Source: Candidatus Poseidoniaceae archaeon
GTDB taxonomy: Archaea; Thermoplasmatota; Poseidoniia; Poseidoniales; Poseidoniaceae
Direction: 5' to 3'
Assembly: GCA_028822845.1 (NCBI GenBank)
Contig: JAPKCS010000017.1
Coordinates: forward strand, 1-43,305
DNA length: 43,305 nucleotides
Made by a program: the position numbers and the translations under genes. A model generated the notes under the pieces. It worked only from the letters and a program-made list of their open reading frames with translations. It did not search any database and was not told the DNA's origin. Positions 11,307 through 20,243 of this stretch are shown here, piece after piece (the first letter of the stretch is position 1; every line of letters begins with the position of its first letter).

Positions 11307-11924
11307 TCACTTGTTCTTGAATCGCTTGAGACGGAACGTTTCTTCCCGTTCCATTTCTTCAAGACGCAGTTGAATAAAGACTCGTGCTTCTTCAAGTTCT
11401 GGAATCACTTTGAATTCCAAAGCATTGACACGTCGCTTGGTGGCCTCGATTTCTTGGAGCAAGCGTTTGAGGGTCGCTTCCATTTCTGAAGCACGAACGA
11501 TTTTTTCAATCAAGTTGCCAAACGATTCACTGGCTTCATCGATGTAAGGAGAAGAACCGATGTAACCAACGCCCCGTTCTTGGAACGTTGATTTCAAATT
11601 GGTTCCACTGACGCTAGGTACTACGACACCCATGATGTTTCGGCGTTCAACTTCGACTTCAGGGTGGCCCGTGTTGGCGATGGCAGCTGCACGGACCGCC
11701 AAACCACCTTCGATGGCATTGGCAAGGTCGATGCGTTGCTTTGCAAGTCGGTAGGTAGCGGTTAAGTCTCGCTTGGCTTCGATCATCTCAGCAAGCAGTT
11801 GACGGAATTCATGGAACAAACCGTCCCGCTTCATCTTCAACAACTTGTACCCGTTTTTGGTTTGCTTAATGCGCCCCTTGAGCTTGATTAGCTCGCTTCG
11901 AGTAGGCTTAATGTCGAGTGCCAT
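11307..11924 (-). CDS. atpD: A-type ATP synthase subunit D
   Basis: Central-shaft subunit of the rotary ATP synthase, turning inside the A3B3 head. 205 residues; the N-terminal helix PTRSELIKLKGRIKQTKNGYKLLKMKRD is the family hallmark (only part shown: SELIKLKGRIKQ), and the C-terminal helix (RRVNALEFKVIPELEE) forms the other half of the antiparallel coiled coil. The glycine-containing middle segment with VVVPSVSG is the globular part. Start ATG 11924 follows GGAGGG at good spacing. It is the last gene of the nine-gene operon; the usual subunit G found after D in methanogens is absent. Confidence 0.96.
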   Translation of the reverse strand: MALDIKPTRSELIKLKGRIKQTKNGYKLLKMKRDGLFHEFRQLLAEMIEAKRDLTATYRLAKQRIDLANAIEGGLAVRAAAIANTGHPEVEVERRNIMGVVVPSVSGTNLKSTFQERGVGYIGSSPYIDEASESFGNLIEKIVRASEMEATLKRLLQEIEATKRRVNALEFKVIPELEEARVFIQLRLEEMEREETFRLKRFKNK

Positions 11925-11957: not shown

Positions 11958-13337
11958 TCACGCTTTGTTGTCTGGGTGGTACTTGTCAATCCACTTCTGG
12001 TCAAGACGAACGAGGTACTTGGTGTCGATTGAGGACATGAGTTCCCAGCACAAATCGAGTGTTTCTTCGATTGTACGGTCTTCGTCACGGGTTTGGCGAA
12101 GGAACTTGTCTTCGAACACACCGGAGAAGGTGAGCAATTGCTTGTCACGCTCATTCAATGCATCTTCACCGACGATGGCAACCAATCCACGGAGTTCACG
12201 ACCCTGTGCATATCCTGCATACATCTGGTCAGAGACAGACTTGTGATCTTCACGGGTTGTCTTTTCTCCGATGCATGACCCCATCAAACGAGAGAGTGAT
12301 GGAAGCACGTTGATCGGCGGATAGATTCCCTGTTGGTGGAGTTCACGAGAGATAACAATTTGACCTTCTGTAATGTAACCAGACAAATCTGGGATCGGGT
12401 GAGTAATATCGTCACCAGGCATGGTCAGAATTGGGAATTGGGTAATCGAACCCTTCTTGCCCTTGACAATTCCTGCACGTTCGTAGAGCATAGCCAAATC
12501 GGTGTACATGTAACCGGGGTAACCACGTCGTCCAGGAACTTCTTCTCGAGCAGCACCAATTTGACGAAGAGCGTCACAGTAGTTGGTCATGTCCGTGTAG
12601 ATTACCAGAACGTGCTTGTCCTTCTCAAACGCCAGGTATTCAGCAGCGGTCAAAGCAAGACGTGGTGTGATGATTCGCTCGACGGCCGGGTCGTCGGCAA
12701 GGTTGACGAACAACACAGCGCTTTCGAGTGCACCGGTTCGCTCCAAATCGGAACGGAAGAAGTTGTACTCTTCAGCGGTGATACCCATGGCACAGAACAC
12801 AACGATGAAATCTTCATCGGAGCCCTTGAGCTTGGCTTGACGAGCAATTTGCAGAGCAATGTCATTGTGTGGAAGACCAGATGCCGAGAAAATTGGCAAC
12901 TTCTGTCCACGGACGAGTGTCGTACAAAGATCGATGGCAGAGATTCCAGTTTGAATGAAATCGTGCGGGCTCTGACGGCTGTATGGGTTGATTGCAGCAC
13001 CGATAATGTCGGCTTTTTGATCTGCAACGATTTCTGGACCGCCGTCACGAGGACGACCTGCTCCATCGAGAATTCGACCGATGAGGTCGGTGCTCACTGG
13101 GAGTTTGAAAACATCACCCATGAAGGTGACACCTGCATCTCGGTCGATCTTTGCTGTGCCTTCGAACACTTGCACGATGACCATGTCATCGGAGGTGTCG
13201 AGCACTTGCCCGTTCTTGATGGTTCCATTGGTGAGCCGTAGTGTAACGATTTCACCGAAAGCAACAGGTTCAGTTTTGTTCAAAAAGACCAGTGGTCCTT
13301 TCACGTCAGTAATGGTTCGGTATTCTTTTCCAGTCAT
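11958..13337 (-). CDS. atpB: A-type ATP synthase subunit B (regulatory nucleotide-binding)
   Basis: Non-catalytic subunit of the A3B3 hexamer. 459 residues from ATG 13337. A GTG at 13346 is in frame but sits inside the Shine-Dalgarno motif GAGGAG, so the later ATG is preferred. Family landmarks: [15 protein letters not shown], the DKDAGV-like [12 protein letters not shown], the degenerate nucleotide loop region [12 protein letters not shown] (no GKT, as expected for B), [20 protein letters not shown] and [18 protein letters not shown]. It starts 12 bases after the atpA stop. Confidence 0.98.
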
Positions 13338-13349
13338 GATAATCACTCC

Positions 13350-15089
<1,740 letters not shown>

Positions 15090-15117
15090 TTTTATTTCCT
15101 CCATTTTTGTTGGAACA

Positions 15118-15417
15118 TTACTTCCAAAGGTCGACCCCTATTGCCTTGCGGATGGTGTCCCGCAAAGTGGTGTCTTCTTCCGTTCCAATGCCAAGCACGG
15201 TCGGAGAGACGGATGCCGAGAGTTGGTCACGAAGACGCTCTGGCAAGGCAGCGAGGATTGCGGAGTCGACTACGACAATCCCGACGCTTTTGTTGTTGAG
15301 AAGTGATTTGAATGTGGAGACCATTGCGTCTTCACCTTCAGGGTTGAGCAGGTGACTGACACCTGCAAGTTGGAAACCAAGGGTGAATTCTGGCGTACCT
15401 ACAACTGCGATATCCAT
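15118..15417 (-). CDS. atpF: A-type ATP synthase subunit F
   Basis: Small central-stalk subunit with a Rossmann-like fold. 99 residues from ATG 15417, which has GAGGTG at 6-base spacing; the in-frame GTG at 15426 is part of that motif. Family features are [18 protein letters not shown] at the N-terminus and [19 protein letters not shown] in the middle, ending with a C-terminal helix. Starts 10 bases past the atpC stop. Confidence 0.95.
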
Positions 15418-15427
15418 TCCATTCACC

Positions 15428-16471
15428 TCAGTTCAATATGTGTGCTTCCAGCACATCGGTTGGCAAACCCGCTAGACGGCCTCGCACAATCAGTCGCAAG
15501 TCGTTTACTTCTTGCACCTTCATGGCGATGTAGTGAATGACTGGTAGAGCGGAAACAGGGTGCAGGAAACTCATACGAGCCATCATCTTGTGTTCGCGTT
15601 CCTTCAACCAGGTGACGACCACATCGAGGCTTCTGTTTTCCTTTGAGGCCGCAAGTGTTTCTTCGAACGAAGATCCGTCGAAACGAGGTGCGTTTCGGAG
15701 CAGGTCGAGCAAAGCGTCTTTTCCACCGGCAGCAATGGCAGAGAAGGAACGCTTAGGCAAAACCCGACCACCGGAGATGAGCAGCCCGACGGTTTGTTCG
15801 TTTGACAAACCAACAGCCTCTGCTTCGAGGATGTTGAGGATGTTACGATGATCGATTTCAGCAGCGACCAAGCCTCGGAGGAAGCGGACAACTGGTCCTT
15901 TTCCAGTGAGGGCTTGGAGGGCGTGGGCGAAGTAGTGTCGGTCGAGAGCGTCTTCGTAATCAGAGAGACGTGCCTCGTCTGGGACCGCAGCGAGTGCTGA
16001 ACCAAACGACTTGCGACGCATCTGGACTGCAGCGGAGCGCAAATCGTCAGCGCTCTCAATGATTTTGATCCAAGGCGTGTTAATGTCGTTGAGTTCAGGC
16101 AGGATTGCGTGAATGATTTTTTCCATTTCCACATCGTTAGCCACGGAGCGAAGAACAACCTTTGCGTTGTGGTATTGGTAACGAGAGGTGTAGATTTCAA
16201 CCATCGAACGGATTTTTCCGTTACAGATACCGACCATTTTGTCGAGTTCGTGTTCGAGGTTGTGAGTAAGGGCTGCTTCAACCAAATCGCCACCGGTCAG
16301 ACGACCGGCGTACAGGTCCATTTCAGCTCGGTAGCCAATATCACTGATGGCAACGGTAAGCTGATCGGGTGATTGGCTGATCAATTGGCGCAAACGGGCA
16401 CGGTCCGCAAGTTTCTGCCGTCGAGCTTTCGCTCGGGCAGCAACGTATGGTGTGTTTCCTGTCATTACCAT
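15428..16471 (-). CDS. atpC: A-type ATP synthase subunit C
   Basis: Funnel-shaped subunit linking the central stalk to the membrane ring (V-type subunit d homologue). 347 residues, almost wholly helical; the N-terminus YVAARAKARRQKL and the internal three-fold helical pattern (for example DYEDALDRHYFAHAL and RNILNILEAEAVGL) are typical. ATG 16471 has GAGGG at 6-base spacing; the second ATG two codons later is less well placed. Confidence 0.95.
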   Translation of the reverse strand: MVMTGNTPYVAARAKARRQKLADRARLRQLISQSPDQLTVAISDIGYRAEMDLYAGRLTGGDLVEAALTHNLEHELDKMVGICNGKIRSMVEIYTSRYQYHNAKVVLRSVANDVEMEKIIHAILPELNDINTPWIKIIESADDLRSAAVQMRRKSFGSALAAVPDEARLSDYEDALDRHYFAHALQALTGKGPVVRFLRGLVAAEIDHRNILNILEAEAVGLSNEQTVGLLISGGRVLPKRSFSAIAAGGKDALLDLLRNAPRFDGSSFEETLAASKENRSLDVVVTWLKEREHKMMARMSFLHPVSALPVIHYIAMKVQEVNDLRLIVRGRLAGLPTDVLEAHILN

Positions 16472-16480
16472 AAGTATCCC

Positions 16481-17041
16481 TCAGTCAAATAGAATTTTGT
16501 TGGTGGAGCTCAATTGGTCTTTCCACGACGCTTCGAGAAGTGTGTCGAAACGCATGTCGTACGATACCGAGCCGTCGGTTGCTTCGAGGACAAATCCTCC
16601 AAGACCGGGAACAGCGTCACCCATTCCTCGCTTTCCAGCGAGTTCCGAGAGTGCCTTTCGATCCATCTCCACAGGGCGGACGTTGAAGTCCTTACCAATC
16701 TCATCAGCCTTGGCCATGAGGGACTTGAGCAAACTTGCTCGTCCTTTCATTTTCGGGCTGCTGAGTTCTGAATGAGTCATGGCCAAGGTTGCATCGAGCA
16801 CCTTGCGTCGAGCGACAAGAATTTCCTTTTGGTTGGCTTGTCGGGCACTGGCCACAATTTCGCGAGCAAGTTGAGTTGCTTCACGTTCGGTGCGACTGGC
16901 CGCTTCGGAGCGGATTATTACTGCCTTGGCTGTTGCTTCAGCCACAATTACATCGGCTTCTTTCTGAGCCTCTGCGATCATAGCATCGGCTTCCGCCTTA
17001 GCTGATTTTGAGATATCTTTTGCGAGTGTTTCAAGCGTCAT
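16481..17041 (-). CDS. atpE: A-type ATP synthase subunit E
   Basis: Peripheral-stalk subunit. 186 residues: a long Ala/Glu/Lys-rich N-terminal helix (to about residue 95, with ADAMIAEAQKEADVIVAEA) that pairs with subunit H, and a C-terminal globular domain ending in LLEASWKDQLSSTNKILFD that caps the A3B3 head. The segment GGFVLEATDGSVSYDMRFDT is the conserved E-subunit strand pair. GGAGGAAACACA precedes the start ATG. Confidence 0.95.
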   Translation of the reverse strand: MTLETLAKDISKSAKAEADAMIAEAQKEADVIVAEATAKAVIIRSEAASRTEREATQLAREIVASARQANQKEILVARRKVLDATLAMTHSELSSPKMKGRASLLKSLMAKADEIGKDFNVRPVEMDRKALSELAGKRGMGDAVPGLGGFVLEATDGSVSYDMRFDTLLEASWKDQLSSTNKILFD

Positions 17042-17108
17042 TGTGTTTCCTCCATAATGGTGATTTCAATTGACCAAGCGAACTTGGTCCTTCCATCGTT
17101 GGGCGTCT

Positions 17109-17414
17109 TCATAGGAAGAGTGGTAGGGCACCGAGAATAACGATAGATTCAGGCAAAGCAGTGAAAATCAATGCTGGGCCGAACTTGCTTCCGTCTTCTG
17201 CGAGCATACCGACAGCTGCGCTGCCAATGGCGGCCTGGGAGAGGCCAGCGCCAATTGCGGCGAGGCCAAGGGCGATTCCAGCGCCAATTGCTGTGTATCC
17301 GTCACCATCGCTGGCACCGGCTGGGTCTGCTGCTGCTGCTCCTTGAGCGACCATGGTAATGGCTGCCAGTAGGATCAACGTTCTTAGGCTCATTTTTAGG
17401 GTGTTTGTGTTCAT
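17109..17414 (-). CDS. atpK: A-type ATP synthase membrane ring subunit K (proteolipid)
   Basis: Ion-carrying ring subunit. 101 residues from ATG 17414, served by GGAGG; upstream in-frame starts overlap atpI and are rejected. Residues 1-29 look like a signal sequence ending AQGAAAA, so the mature protein is probably a single two-helix hairpin of about 72 residues. Helix 1 contains GAGLSQAAIGSAAVG with Gln60; helix 2 contains FTALPES with the ion-binding Glu89 followed by Ser90. Gln in helix 1 with Glu-Ser in helix 2 resembles sodium-binding c-subunits, so the coupling ion is uncertain. Located between atpI and atpE. Confidence 0.95.
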   Translation of the reverse strand: MNTNTLKMSLRTLILLAAITMVAQGAAAADPAGASDGDGYTAIGAGIALGLAAIGAGLSQAAIGSAAVGMLAEDGSKFGPALIFTALPESIVILGALPLFL

Positions 17415-17452
17415 ATTTGCTGCCTCCGTGTTTTGGTATGTCCATTGGACTC

Positions 17453-19825
17453 TTATTGCCCCTCCAGGTGAAGGGCGCGGCCACCGAGCGGTGCAAAAGC
17501 ACGGCCGGATCCGTCGTAGAATTTGCCCATCCATTCCACAAAGTGGAGACGGGCTGCGTGAATCGTAGGTGAAAGGATGCCAAGCGCTAGAGCAAAGACT
17601 TGGACGAAGAGGAAGATTACCATGCAGAGAAGTGCAGTCAAGTAACCTGCAGCGCCACCGGCTTCAATGCCAGCAACCATGTTTTCCCAGCCAAGGACAA
17701 TGGAGACTTCAGCGATTTTGACACCAGCCACGCCAACCGCCATGATGCGGAGGTATGAGAGGGTGTTGGCGAGAAGACCGAAAGTTTCGATTGGACCCAT
17801 GATGATGCCGCCAGCCCATCCAAAGCCTTCGTACACTGCGAGACCGATGATGAGGCAAACAATGCCGCCGATGAGAAGAAGGTTCCACAAAGGCTGGAAT
17901 TCAAACAGTTCATTGTGACCCATCACGTAGTTTCGGCAGACCATGAAGCCGCCAGCGAGGATCATCAACCAAGAGCCCTTTTCGAAGAAAGCAGCGGAGA
18001 AGCCGTGAGCCTTGTTGACGTTCATGAAGCCGATGATGAGGCCAAGCAGGATGTGGAAGACGCCGAGGTAGACTGCGAGCGCAACATATTGTTCGAGGCC
18101 GTGACCTGCGCTTGCCCGGTGGAACGGCATGAGGACGAATGGATGGCTTGCATCCCCAAGTCCAGTCAAGACCGCAATCGATTCTGGCAAGGTGAAGTGG
18201 TGGGTCCACTCATAGAAGGAGACAAGTGGTGCGATGTGTGGGTGACCTGCATGGCTGCCGTCCCAAACAAAGCCGAAGCCTTCTGCGAAGATGACGCCCC
18301 AAATGATGCACCAAACGCCCATCCAGCGAAGTACGGTCATGCCTTTTTGAGCCAATGGATCGACGGCGAAAGGTTTCGAACCAAGCCAATACGAAAGACC
18401 GACAAGAATAGCGCCATAGCCCCAATCTCCAAGAATCATTCCATAGATGAACGGGAAGGTCATCATGATCAGCATCGAAGGTTCGAAGGAACCATACTTT
18501 GGACGGCCGACGAGGTCGACGAGCAACTCAAAGGGCTGTGTAGCCTTGCCGTTTTGGAATTCGATAGGCGGTGTTGGCTCATCGTGGTGCTCTTCCGGTG
18601 CAGACATGGAGCGAATCATGGTGAGGGTGATGTCCAGTTCTGGCAAGTTGATTTTACCATCGCCGTCCAAATCCATGGCCTGAACCAGCTTACCAACTTC
18701 CCAAGGAGGAAGGTTAGCGATGCTTGCAGACTTGAGGGCCTGTTGGAATTCGTAACTGTCGACCATTCCTGAGTCATCGAGATCGATGGTCTTGAAGAAT
18801 TGGAAAACGGAGAGTTTGTTCTTGAAGAGATAATCGGAGAGCATGGTCAACTCTTTAGCGACTTCAGCGTGTTCTTCGTCGTGGGAATCGTCGTTGTGGT
18901 GGCCGTGGTGCGGGTCAACATAGGCTTCGACGCTGACGTGAGAGGCGATGCTCCCGAGTTTTTCCTTGACCATATCGCCTTGTGCGGTTGGCACCCATCC
19001 ATCAAGAGCGAAGGCTTGAGCGCTCACTGCGACCAACGTTGGTGCGGTGTAGATTGCATCTTCCCGGGTCAGGAATTCTTCCAAAGCGACGACGTTGCGT
19101 GCGTTTCGTTGAACCCATGCATCGAGGGCGTCTTGTGTGGAAGCAATGGTGTTCTCTAGGTTTAGGATTTCTGAAGTCAGGTCTTTGACTTTCTTAGCAG
19201 GCGATCCCTCGCCAGCAGGGATTTGAACGGCTTTAGCGCCAAGTTCAGCCAAACAAATCTGAACTTCAGCAGCGTGTTGCGTTTGGCACGCAACCGCCAC
19301 GACGCCAGGAGCGCTGTGGAGGAGGATTTCTGTACCAAGGGCTGCAAAAACCGTCTTGGCTTTGCTTGCACGCGCCGTTTCGCCAACATATACTTCCAAG
19401 CCGTCGAAACCACCCATCAATTCCAGAGGGATGTCGAGGGGTGCGAGGCGGGCAAGAACTTGAAGTTGGTCGGAGAGGGTGCTGATTGAGGATTCGCTGT
19501 CCCGTACGGTGTCAATGTAGGCAAGGGCGTCATCGATCTTTGGACCGAAGCTGTTCATCAGTGATTTTGCATCTGCGATGGAAAGTGGACCTTCTGTGTT
19601 GTTCGCCCGCACTGAGGAAGTCACAGCTCGTACCTTGGTGAGCAATGCACTGACTTGGTTGGCTCCTTCATTGGAGAGAGCACGTCCAACGCCGATGCCA
19701 TCTTGGAATTGTCCGTATTCTTCAATGTGAACGCATGAAAGCGAGGCACACATCCTGAGCACCTCTTCCATCCTAGCGACGGGAGCCGCCACGGTGAGGC
19801 GGGACATTTCTGCGGTGGCGAACAT
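17453..19825 (-). CDS. atpI: A-type ATP synthase subunit I with inserted EF-hand pair
   Basis: Membrane stator subunit (subunit a) that forms the ion half-channels. 790 residues, over 100 longer than usual. Residues 1-300 are the cytosolic arm with coiled coils. The extra part lies at about 303-425: a His/Asp-rich stretch (HHGHHNDDSHDEEH, about 306-319), then two EF-hand loops, DLDDSGMVDSYE (348-359) and DLDGDGKINLPE (385-396), both with acidic or polar residues at calcium positions 1, 3, 5, 9 and Glu at 12. The membrane domain starts at about 445 (FPFIYGMILGDWGYGA) and contains NTLSYLRIMAVG, whose Arg is the conserved proton- or sodium-channel arginine. ATG 19825 is 9 bases after the atpH stop. 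Calcium or metal control of the motor is an inference from the motifs. Confidence 0.96.
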   Translation of the reverse strand: MFATAEMSRLTVAAPVARMEEVLRMCASLSCVHIEEYGQFQDGIGVGRALSNEGANQVSALLTKVRAVTSSVRANNTEGPLSIADAKSLMNSFGPKIDDALAYIDTVRDSESSISTLSDQLQVLARLAPLDIPLELMGGFDGLEVYVGETARASKAKTVFAALGTEILLHSAPGVVAVACQTQHAAEVQICLAELGAKAVQIPAGEGSPAKKVKDLTSEILNLENTIASTQDALDAWVQRNARNVVALEEFLTREDAIYTAPTLVAVSAQAFALDGWVPTAQGDMVKEKLGSIASHVSVEAYVDPHHGHHNDDSHDEEHAEVAKELTMLSDYLFKNKLSVFQFFKTIDLDDSGMVDSYEFQQALKSASIANLPPWEVGKLVQAMDLDGDGKINLPELDITLTMIRSMSAPEEHHDEPTPPIEFQNGKATQPFELLVDLVGRPKYGSFEPSMLIMMTFPFIYGMILGDWGYGAILVGLSYWLGSKPFAVDPLAQKGMTVLRWMGVWCIIWGVIFAEGFGFVWDGSHAGHPHIAPLVSFYEWTHHFTLPESIAVLTGLGDASHPFVLMPFHRASAGHGLEQYVALAVYLGVFHILLGLIIGFMNVNKAHGFSAAFFEKGSWLMILAGGFMVCRNYVMGHNELFEFQPLWNLLLIGGIVCLIIGLAVYEGFGWAGGIIMGPIETFGLLANTLSYLRIMAVGVAGVKIAEVSIVLGWENMVAGIEAGGAAGYLTALLCMVIFLFVQVFALALGILSPTIHAARLHFVEWMGKFYDGSGRAFAPLGGRALHLEGQ

Positions 19826-19834
19826 GGAACCAGC

Positions 19835-20146
19835 TCACTGTGAATTTACGGTATCGAGTAGATGTGCTACGGCCTTGTCTTTCCGGCCACCAGCTGAGGA
19901 TTCGATTGCTTCAACCACTTTTTGGCCGTCCTTAGCAACACCTTCAGCCTCTTTGTTCGCTCCTGCACGAGCAGCATCTAAAGTGGATTGTGTGTCTGCA
20001 ACCGAGCTATCGGTTGCTTCGGTGACCAGGTGCACGGATTGACGCCGAGCCTCTGCTGCGATTTTACCAACTTCTGCTTGGGCATCAGCAAGTTGCTTTT
20101 CGGCATCTTGTTCTGCTTGCTTGATTTTGCGAAGGACATCGGCCAT
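19835..20146 (-). CDS. atpH: A-type ATP synthase subunit H
   Basis: Peripheral-stalk helix that pairs with subunit E. 103 residues from ATG 20146 (MADVLRKIKQAEQDAEKQLA), nearly all heptad-like and rich in Ala, Glu, Gln and Lys. The in-frame TTG at 20167 would add seven hydrophobic residues and is unlikely. It is the first gene of the operon; no Shine-Dalgarno motif is visible before the ATG, so the mRNA may be leaderless. Identity rests on composition plus the standard H-I-K-E-C-F-A-B-D order. Confidence 0.85.
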   Translation of the reverse strand: MADVLRKIKQAEQDAEKQLADAQAEVGKIAAEARRQSVHLVTEATDSSVADTQSTLDAARAGANKEAEGVAKDGQKVVEAIESSAGGRKDKAVAHLLDTVNSQ

Positions 20147-20243
20147 ACCCAAGATAATCACCAGCAAATTCGCTGAACAGGAGGGGGTTTATGAGGCTAA
20201 TGGGGAGGACTTCACATGCGTGAAGGACACCTACGGCGGTGAA

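What the first reader, a model, noticed from the sequence alone, without database searches (positions are those of the whole stretch)
18596..18913. EF-hand pair and His/Asp-rich segment inserted in the ATP synthase stator subunit AtpI
Seen: AtpI carries about 110 residues between the cytosolic arm and the membrane domain, with a His/Asp-rich stretch (18869-18913) and two complete 12-residue EF-hand loops (Asp348-Glu359, Asp385-Glu396). Known: archaeal subunit I normally lacks these and is about 650 residues. Inferred: calcium (or another divalent metal) could change the coupling or assembly of a rotary ATP synthase. A pair of EF-hands is the usual cooperative unit, so this looks like a working sensor rather than a chance motif. 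I know of no described calcium-sensing A-type ATP synthase.
Basis: partly seen in the sequence, partly recalled or inferred. Interest (0 to 1): 0.85.

Follow-up and report, generated by a model that had tools for sequence, protein, structure and literature searches.

The report
Calcium-binding insert in archaeal ATP synthase
A group of abundant ocean archaea carries a calmodulin-like calcium-binding domain inside the stator of its ATP synthase, and close relatives carry versions of the same domain in respiratory complex I and in an oxidase-like protein, which suggests that calcium acts on energy conversion in these cells.

Summary
AtpI (window 17453-19825, minus, 790 aa) holds an EF-hand pair (residues 325-405) between its cytosolic arm and membrane domain; both 12-residue loops are canonical. 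It passes Pfam's cut-off, models as two EF-hands, and was gained once, in the main clade of one genus. All 42 distinct inserts keep ligand residues at loop positions 1, 3, 5 and 12; pooled dN/dS is 0.05, near that of the membrane domain.

Two corrections. The His/Asp-rich stretch is older: relatives without EF-hands have it, and the EF pair landed inside it. And the module is not unique to AtpI. Homologues are the tail of an oxidase-fold protein in 47 of 48 sampled genomes of the family, an insert in a His/Asp-rich loop of NuoL (complex I) in another genus, and a NuoJ-like tail in a third. The tested His/Asp codon pattern has two exact matches in the window's genome: AtpI and NuoL.

So one module family was placed repeatedly on energy-converting membrane proteins. 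Most likely it is a tethered, cytosolic, Ca2+-responsive docking or regulatory lobe. Ca2+ binding and any effect on ATP synthesis are inferred. The papers searched hold no description of this.

The parts
17453..19825 (-). AtpI, A-type ATP synthase stator subunit I (790 aa) with EF-hand insert
   Evidence: translation; Pfam V_ATPase_I 1.6e-33; NCBIfam V-type ATP synthase subunit I models match, best 354.3 bits, but below their curated cut-offs; Foldseek 6r0z_N, Thermus V/A-ATPase, E 2.1e-18
18920..19825 (-). N-terminal cytosolic arm, residues 1-302
   Evidence: family knowledge; Foldseek hit to 3rrk, cytoplasmic N-terminal domain of subunit I, E 1.2e-07
18854..18919 (-). N-side His/Asp-rich linker, residues 303-324 (6 His and 7 Asp/Glu of 22), older than the EF pair
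   Evidence: pLDDT below 50 at 303-321
18611..18853 (-). paired EF-hand module, residues 325-405
   Evidence: Pfam, AlphaFold secondary structure, conservation, dN/dS 0.051, module profile 140.5 bits
18749..18784 (-). EF loop 1, D348-E359
18638..18673 (-). EF loop 2, D385-E396
18575..18610 (-). C-side half of the split His/Asp-rich linker, residues 406-417 (SMSAPEEHHDEP)
   Evidence: pLDDT below 50 at 407-454
17456..18574 (-). membrane domain, residues 418-790, with invariant R693 in SYLR
11958..20167 (-). A-type ATP synthase genes read in the order H-I-K-E-C-F-A-B, in which atpI lies (names by eye from sequence and order, no family search); the ORF 11307-11924 after them may be subunit D, but its sequence was not read
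   Evidence: ORF lists

Best explanation
The insert is a calmodulin-lobe-like EF-hand pair that was copied once into a pre-existing flexible His/Asp-rich linker of AtpI, at the junction of the cytosolic stator arm and the membrane domain. It is one of a family of homologous modules placed on several energy-converting membrane proteins in this family of archaea, probably all facing the cytosol. Most likely it binds Ca2+ through both loops when cytosolic Ca2+ rises. It then exposes a hydrophobic groove that docks a helix, either in cis on the stator or central stalk or in trans on a partner, and so changes ATP synthase activity or its association with other complexes. Shown: anatomy, homology, single gain, retention, purifying selection. 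Inferred: Ca2+ binding, cytosolic location, docking. Not known: the partner and the direction of the effect.
For: Pfam EF-hand pair over cut-off. Model: helices 340-345, 357-366, 377-384, 394-405 with short strands 354-356 and 391-393; block pLDDT 72-81 for residues 321-400, and linker segments under 50. 42 of 42 distinct inserts keep D at 1, E at 12 and D/N/S at 3 and 5 in both loops; ligand, Gly and hydrophobic positions are more conserved than the rest of the insert, permutation p 0.00015. dN/dS 0.051 against 0.040 (membrane domain), 0.078 (arm) and 0.121 (linkers) over 41 pairs. One gain on the AtpI tree; the 39 EF rows form one clade. Homologous modules on an oxidase-fold protein, NuoL and a NuoJ-like protein. 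Two CaCA-type exchanger frames in the genome. Precedent: Ca2+-calmodulin binds the N-terminal domain of the eukaryotic V-ATPase a1 subunit (PMC10313074, passages seen).
Against: No Ca2+ binding measured. The insert is absent from six same-genus AtpI proteins and from those of the other genera sampled, so it is dispensable for the enzyme. The full-length AtpI model is weak overall (pTM 0.35, 13 sequences), so contacts of the module cannot be read from it; the 50 PDB matches listed for it include no EF-hand chain, so the EF fold rests on sequence and predicted secondary structure. The EF-module tree does not resolve which host gave the module to which. EF-hand matches are common in this genome (16 PF13499 matches at E up to 0.1), which makes an EF-hand as such less surprising.
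Confidence: 0.55

Rival explanations
1. The module is a Ca2+-dependent tether: EF lobes on ATP synthase, complex I or the oxidase-fold protein bind each other or one common partner and hold respiratory complexes together, with no direct effect on rotation.
For: Homologous modules occur on different complexes in different genera, besides the oxidase-fold protein; AtpI (17), NuoL (14) and NuoJ-like (2) hosts never coincide in the 48 family genomes; the AtpI linker is predicted disordered and the NuoL site is a His/Asp-rich loop of variable length.
Against: No partner identified; the g3 and g4 genomes and the two same-genus genomes G083 and G087 have only the oxidase-fold copy among strong matches. 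The non-overlap rests on only about three events.
Confidence: 0.25
2. The domain is a constitutively filled structural or metal-buffering element: EF loops and His/Asp linkers store or shield divalent metal at the membrane surface, without switching.
For: His/Asp-rich linkers flank the module in AtpI and NuoL, and linkers of this kind exist without EF-hands in other genera of the order.
Against: The linkers have the highest dN/dS of the four segments (0.121), whereas the EF ligands are conserved throughout; the module sits on disordered arms in the model.
Confidence: 0.13
3. Neutral domain insertion: repetitive His/Asp codons are recombination-prone, and a module copied there is merely tolerated.
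For: The His/Asp codon pattern has two exact matches in the genome, AtpI and NuoL, the two linkers that received modules in different genera.
Against: Purifying selection, conserved ligands and no loss in the 39-row clade.
Confidence: 0.07

Closest known systems
Calmodulin and other EF-hand pairs
   Same: Two canonical 12-residue loops 37 residues apart; phmmer matches calmodulin chains over about 340-398.
   Different: A single pair covalently inserted in an ion-translocating ATPase subunit; an LPPW linker motif common in this archaeal module family.
A/V-type ATP synthase subunit I (Thermus thermophilus) and eukaryotic V-ATPase subunit a
   Same: Same arm, membrane domain and conserved arginine segment.
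   Different: None of 50 AtpI loci (49 genes) of the phylum, taken from outside the insert-bearing clade, carries an EF pair. In eukaryotes Ca2+-calmodulin binds the a1 N-terminal domain as a separate protein (PMC10313074, passages); here the EF pair is built in.
EF-hand-fused transport proteins of mitochondria (SCaMC and aralar carriers, MICU; recalled)
   Same: EF-hands control a bioenergetic membrane protein.
   Different: Those are carriers or channel partners, not the rotary ATP synthase or complex I core subunits.
NuoL of genus g2 and the NuoJ-like protein of genus g5 (found here; g2 is probably Poseidonia, since contig G004:C26 has the length of a record so titled)
   Same: Homologous EF module; in NuoL also inside a His/Asp-rich loop.
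   Different: Different complex; different place in the protein.

Membership tests
EF-hand domain pair | Two 12-residue loops with oxygen ligands at 1, 3, 5, 12, Gly at 6, hydrophobic at 8 | tested here: met
   42 of 42 distinct inserts
EF-hand domain pair | Profile match over the curated cut-off | tested here: met
   PF13499 33.1 bits against 30
EF-hand domain pair | Helix-loop-helix twice with a short strand in each loop | tested here: met
   (predicted model, block pLDDT 72-81 for 321-400); no EF-hand chain among the 50 PDB matches listed for the whole model
EF-hand domain pair | Binds Ca2+ | not testable with these tools
   needs protein; Glu at position 12 in both loops is typical of Ca2+ over Mg2+ (recalled)
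A-type ATP synthase subunit I | V_ATPase_I family match, arm and membrane domain | tested here: met
A-type ATP synthase subunit I | Conserved arginine in the membrane domain (SYLR; role recalled) | tested here: met
   R693 invariant in 13 sequences
A-type ATP synthase subunit I | Gene in the A-type cluster | tested here: met
   neighbouring translations read; names assigned by eye
Calcium-regulated rotary ATPase (functional class) | Activity or assembly changes with Ca2+ | not testable with these tools
Heme-copper oxidase subunit I (for the related protein P0002) | Fold | tested here: met
   Foldseek 8smr_E, TM-score 0.79 by target length, probability 1.00
Heme-copper oxidase subunit I (for the related protein P0002) | Six invariant histidine ligands (recalled) | tested here: not met
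   no invariant His column in 17 sequences; the two best membrane-region columns have His in 14 of 17

The most novel reading that the evidence does not exclude
These archaea have a Ca2+ control layer on oxidative phosphorylation: one mobile EF-hand module family is plugged into ATP synthase (AtpI), complex I (NuoL, NuoJ) and an oxidase-fold protein without canonical heme ligands, so that cytosolic Ca2+ regulates or assembles the energy-converting machinery. It would be an archaeal parallel to mitochondrial Ca2+ control, but with the sensor built into the core subunits.
Probability: 0.4. Interest if true: 0.92.

Novelty: new variant of a known kind. Interest (0 to 1): 0.78.

Why it matters
Direct, covalent Ca2+ sensing by a rotary ATP synthase is not described in any paper found here. 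If it works, it makes testable whether archaea use cytosolic Ca2+ to control energy conversion. The repeated placement of one module on AtpI, NuoL and a NuoJ-like protein in different genera of an abundant marine group is a natural experiment on how regulation is added to ancient core enzymes. Lineages with and without the insert exist inside one genus, giving near-matched pairs for biochemistry.

Tried and rejected
Considered and rejected: chance motif; assembly chimera (insert in many separate assemblies); His/Asp stretch as part of the insertion; EF-hand as a general feature of Thermoplasmatota AtpI (0 of 50 loci); direction of module transfer between hosts (tree unresolved; a single AtpI clade and a single oxidase-fold clade are not rejected, p-AU 0.39 and 0.36); the first guess that P0002 is an ordinary cytochrome oxidase (no Pfam COX1 match in the 575-aa piece scanned or in the three homologues scanned; no invariant His; the genome has a separate true COX1 on contig C34). 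Led nowhere: in the PDB the 60 best sequence matches of P0002 and of its profile shown were EF-hand-type chains matching its tail only. NCBIfam XopAW is a weak match to the EF part, far below its cut-off. The AtpI model was too weak overall to place the module against other subunits.

Limits: genome tallies were read by me from the printed lists. For 7 of the 14 g2 genomes the NuoL identity of the module's host rests on frame length (850-870 aa), the other 7 on a NuoL search. The 50 AtpI loci hold one G004 gene twice, include 13 loci of the window's own order, and three are fragments of 470-538 aa. The AtpI tree used the quick method without bootstrap. The dN/dS pairs (dS under 1.2, dN over 0.005) overlap. 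In one search, 77 of 102 distinct modules (each at least 40 bits) were kept: near-copies over 93% identical in one host, rows with X, rows of odd length and rows with clashing names fell out, and the tool warned of few columns and of long branches meeting. In one search, 72 of 82 rows were kept (97.5% identity filter), after dropping rows with 500 or fewer aligned residues and L001.

Full report
What is there. The window is contig C16 of a genome of 1.92 Mb. Matching public records are titled Poseidoniales or Candidatus Poseidoniaceae archaeon, so the window's order and family (f1 in the tables) are taken as those. The minus strand carries A-type ATP synthase genes, read in the order H-I-K-E-C-F-A-B (names by eye). 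AtpI (17453-19825, 790 aa) matches V_ATPase_I (1.6e-33) and, in residues 341-396, the EF-hand pair family PF13499 over its cut-off. In 20,000 shuffles of the protein none gave such a pair.

What was inserted, and when. In 110 loci (84 distinct AtpI proteins), 49 proteins have the EF pair and 35 do not. Those without it are mostly 676-699 aa long and keep a short His/Asp-rich linker at the same place (for example VDDHHGHDDGHHEPTPP, L083). The six f2 sequences sampled also carry His there. Of ten AtpI proteins sampled outside the order, six have a shorter linker without His, and four (G292, G312, G298, G388) have some. So the linker is older than the insert, and the EF pair split it into a longer N-side half and a shorter C-side half. 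On a tree of AtpI without the insert, the 39 EF rows form one clade (SH-aLRT 96), with the six EF-less rows of the same genus as sister: one gain and no loss. Records carrying the insert include the MG-II chromosome CM001443 (L039) and a contig named MGIIa-L1 (L062); records named Poseidonia (L083, L084) and MGIIa-L2 (L095) lack it. None of 50 AtpI loci (49 genes) of the phylum from outside the insert-bearing clade has an EF pair.

Selection. All 42 distinct inserts have Asp at loop position 1, Glu at 12, and Asp, Asn or Ser at 3 and 5, in both loops. Ligand, Gly and hydrophobic positions are far less variable than the rest of the insert (mean entropy 0.22 against 0.96 bits, permutation p 0.00015). 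Pooled dN/dS over 41 pairs with dS under 1.2 is 0.051 for the EF module, 0.040 for the membrane domain, 0.078 for the arm and 0.121 for the linkers. The pairs are not independent.

Structure. AlphaFold (13 sequences) gives helices 340-345, 357-366, 377-384 and 394-405 with short strands at 354-356 and 391-393, the EF-pair pattern, at block pLDDT 72-81 for residues 321-400 (53 for 401-410). Linker segments 303-321 and 407-454 are below 50. The full model is weak (pTM 0.35), so it does not place the module. Foldseek of the whole model finds subunit I of the Thermus V/A-ATPase first, and no EF-hand chain is among the 50 matches listed. By family knowledge the linker is on the cytosolic side.

The module is shared. 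A search of 15 genomes with AtpI gave unexpected matches confined to the EF segment in other long frames. One is P0002 of the window's own genome (G000:C27, 659 aa), a multi-helix protein with the module as its C-terminal tail: 69% amino-acid and 65% DNA identity to the AtpI module over 81 residues. Its model (pTM 0.71) has the fold of heme-copper oxidase subunit I; the best match by E-value is a cbb3 structure (9g6b_A, 2.0e-08), and 8smr_E reaches a TM-score of 0.79 by target length. No His column is invariant among 17 homologues, so the canonical set of heme and copper ligands is not kept. The genome has a separate true COX1 on contig C34. The f2 homologues listed match only the part before the EF tail, up to about residue 600.

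In genus g2 the module lies inside NuoL (PF00361 at 3.2e-60 for L235). The site is inside a His/Asp-rich loop that other genera have without it (HHAHHHLHHHDDHGDDHDDHHDDD in the window's genome). In genus g5 it is the tail of a 191-aa protein that stands between a NuoJ N-half-like ORF and NuoK-, NuoL- and NuoM-like ORFs (names by eye), taken as the second half of NuoJ. In f2 genus g19 it is on a NuoJ-like protein of G073 (PF00499 at 0.0032, below cut-off), and a divergent EF pair sits at the NuoL site.

With a profile of 17 modules, the strong matches (above 70 bits) in 96 genomes of the order were as follows, counted by me with hosts checked. Oxidase-fold protein: 47 of 48 family genomes; for the missing one, G018, one search lists no match to that gene outside the EF segment. 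AtpI: 17 of 19 g1 genomes; the other two, G083 and G087, have EF-less AtpI (694-aa frames). NuoL: 14 of 14 g2 genomes, of which 7 were confirmed by a NuoL search and 7 rest on frame length. NuoJ-like: 2 of 2 g5 genomes. Other family (f2): 1 of 48, G073. In 243 genomes of the phylum, the 38 with a match at 1e-12 were all of the window's order. The AtpI, NuoL, NuoJ-like and oxidase-fold modules group together against eight other EF-hands of these genomes (97/82), but the order among hosts is unresolved, and the tool warned of long branches. EF-hands as such are common in this genome: 16 PF13499 matches at E up to 0.1.

A coincidence worth noting. The codon pattern for HHxHHxD[DH], taken from the AtpI linker, has exactly two perfect matches in the 1.92-Mb genome (92% complete): AtpI itself (by construction) and NuoL. 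These are the two linkers that received EF modules in different genera. With up to two mismatches there are 52 matches in all, against 5 for the reversed pattern; seven have one mismatch, two of these again in NuoL.

Mechanism. Shown: a canonical EF pair, tethered by predicted-disordered acidic His-rich arms at the arm-membrane junction of the stator, held by selection, and homologous to modules on complex I and on an oxidase-fold protein. Inferred: both loops bind Ca2+; the domain faces the cytosol; Ca2+ entry from seawater or by signalling loads it; the loaded lobe docks a helix and changes activity or association. Two CaCA-type exchanger frames fit a cell that keeps cytosolic Ca2+ low. The direction (brake, activation or tether) is not known.

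Against what is known. In eukaryotes Ca2+-calmodulin binds the N-terminal domain of V-ATPase a1, as a separate protein (PMC10313074, passages seen). Calcium-binding protein families specific to Poseidoniaceae and Thalassarchaeaceae were reported without naming ATP synthase in the passages I saw (PMC9258230). Searches combining EF-hand with A-type or V-type ATP synthase, NuoL, Marine Group II or Poseidoniales returned no paper or one to three papers, none on this by title, abstract start or passages. Two wider searches held 62 and 70 papers, of which only 15 and 12 were listed, none on this by title. Subscription papers and preprints are not held.

Verdict. It is a new variant of a known enzyme; the wider reading, a Ca2+ layer on oxidative phosphorylation in archaea, is not excluded and is the most interesting possibility.

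Noticed in passing
L201:6509-8488 (G000:C27:170508-172484): P0002, a heme-copper-oxidase-fold protein without invariant histidine columns in 17 homologues, found across the order (115 of 115 genomes match the query, some only through an EF segment), with an EF tail in one family and a SAP domain in some members; no oxidase genes recognised by eye next to it in the window's genome.
   Followed up: partly
L113 (G000:C30:18300-18467): A multi-helix protein that reads like an amino-acid permease (by eye, no family search), about 570 aa, with a C-terminal EF-hand pair.
   Followed up: no
L111, L116, L199, L200, L251, L252, L254, L255: Several families of Cys-motif (zinc-ribbon-like) plus EF-hand plus acidic stretch proteins, most with apparent membrane helices (by eye).
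   Followed up: no
L239, L253 (f2 genus g19): A divergent EF pair with an altered first loop (DIDSSRTLTVEE) at the same NuoL His-rich loop, possibly an independent or decaying insertion.
   Followed up: partly
G003:C23 and G067:C15: Two f2 genomes carry an AtpI nearer to family f1 than others listed of their genus (56-57% identity over 414-789; best E about 1e-112), either lateral transfer or wrong binning.
   Followed up: no
G025:C111 (genus g6): Two copies of the EF module in one 781-aa frame of the P0002 family.
   Followed up: no
window 17109-17534 minus: The ATP synthase c subunit has a Q in helix 1 and an ES pair in helix 2 (GLSQAA, LPESIV), a possible Na+-binding signature (recalled, not tested).
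   Followed up: no
f2 homologues of P0002: Twelve f2 matches listed are reported with one in-frame TGA; in G054 (L240) the stop lies at the end of the ORF, so this is probably the terminal stop.
   Followed up: partly
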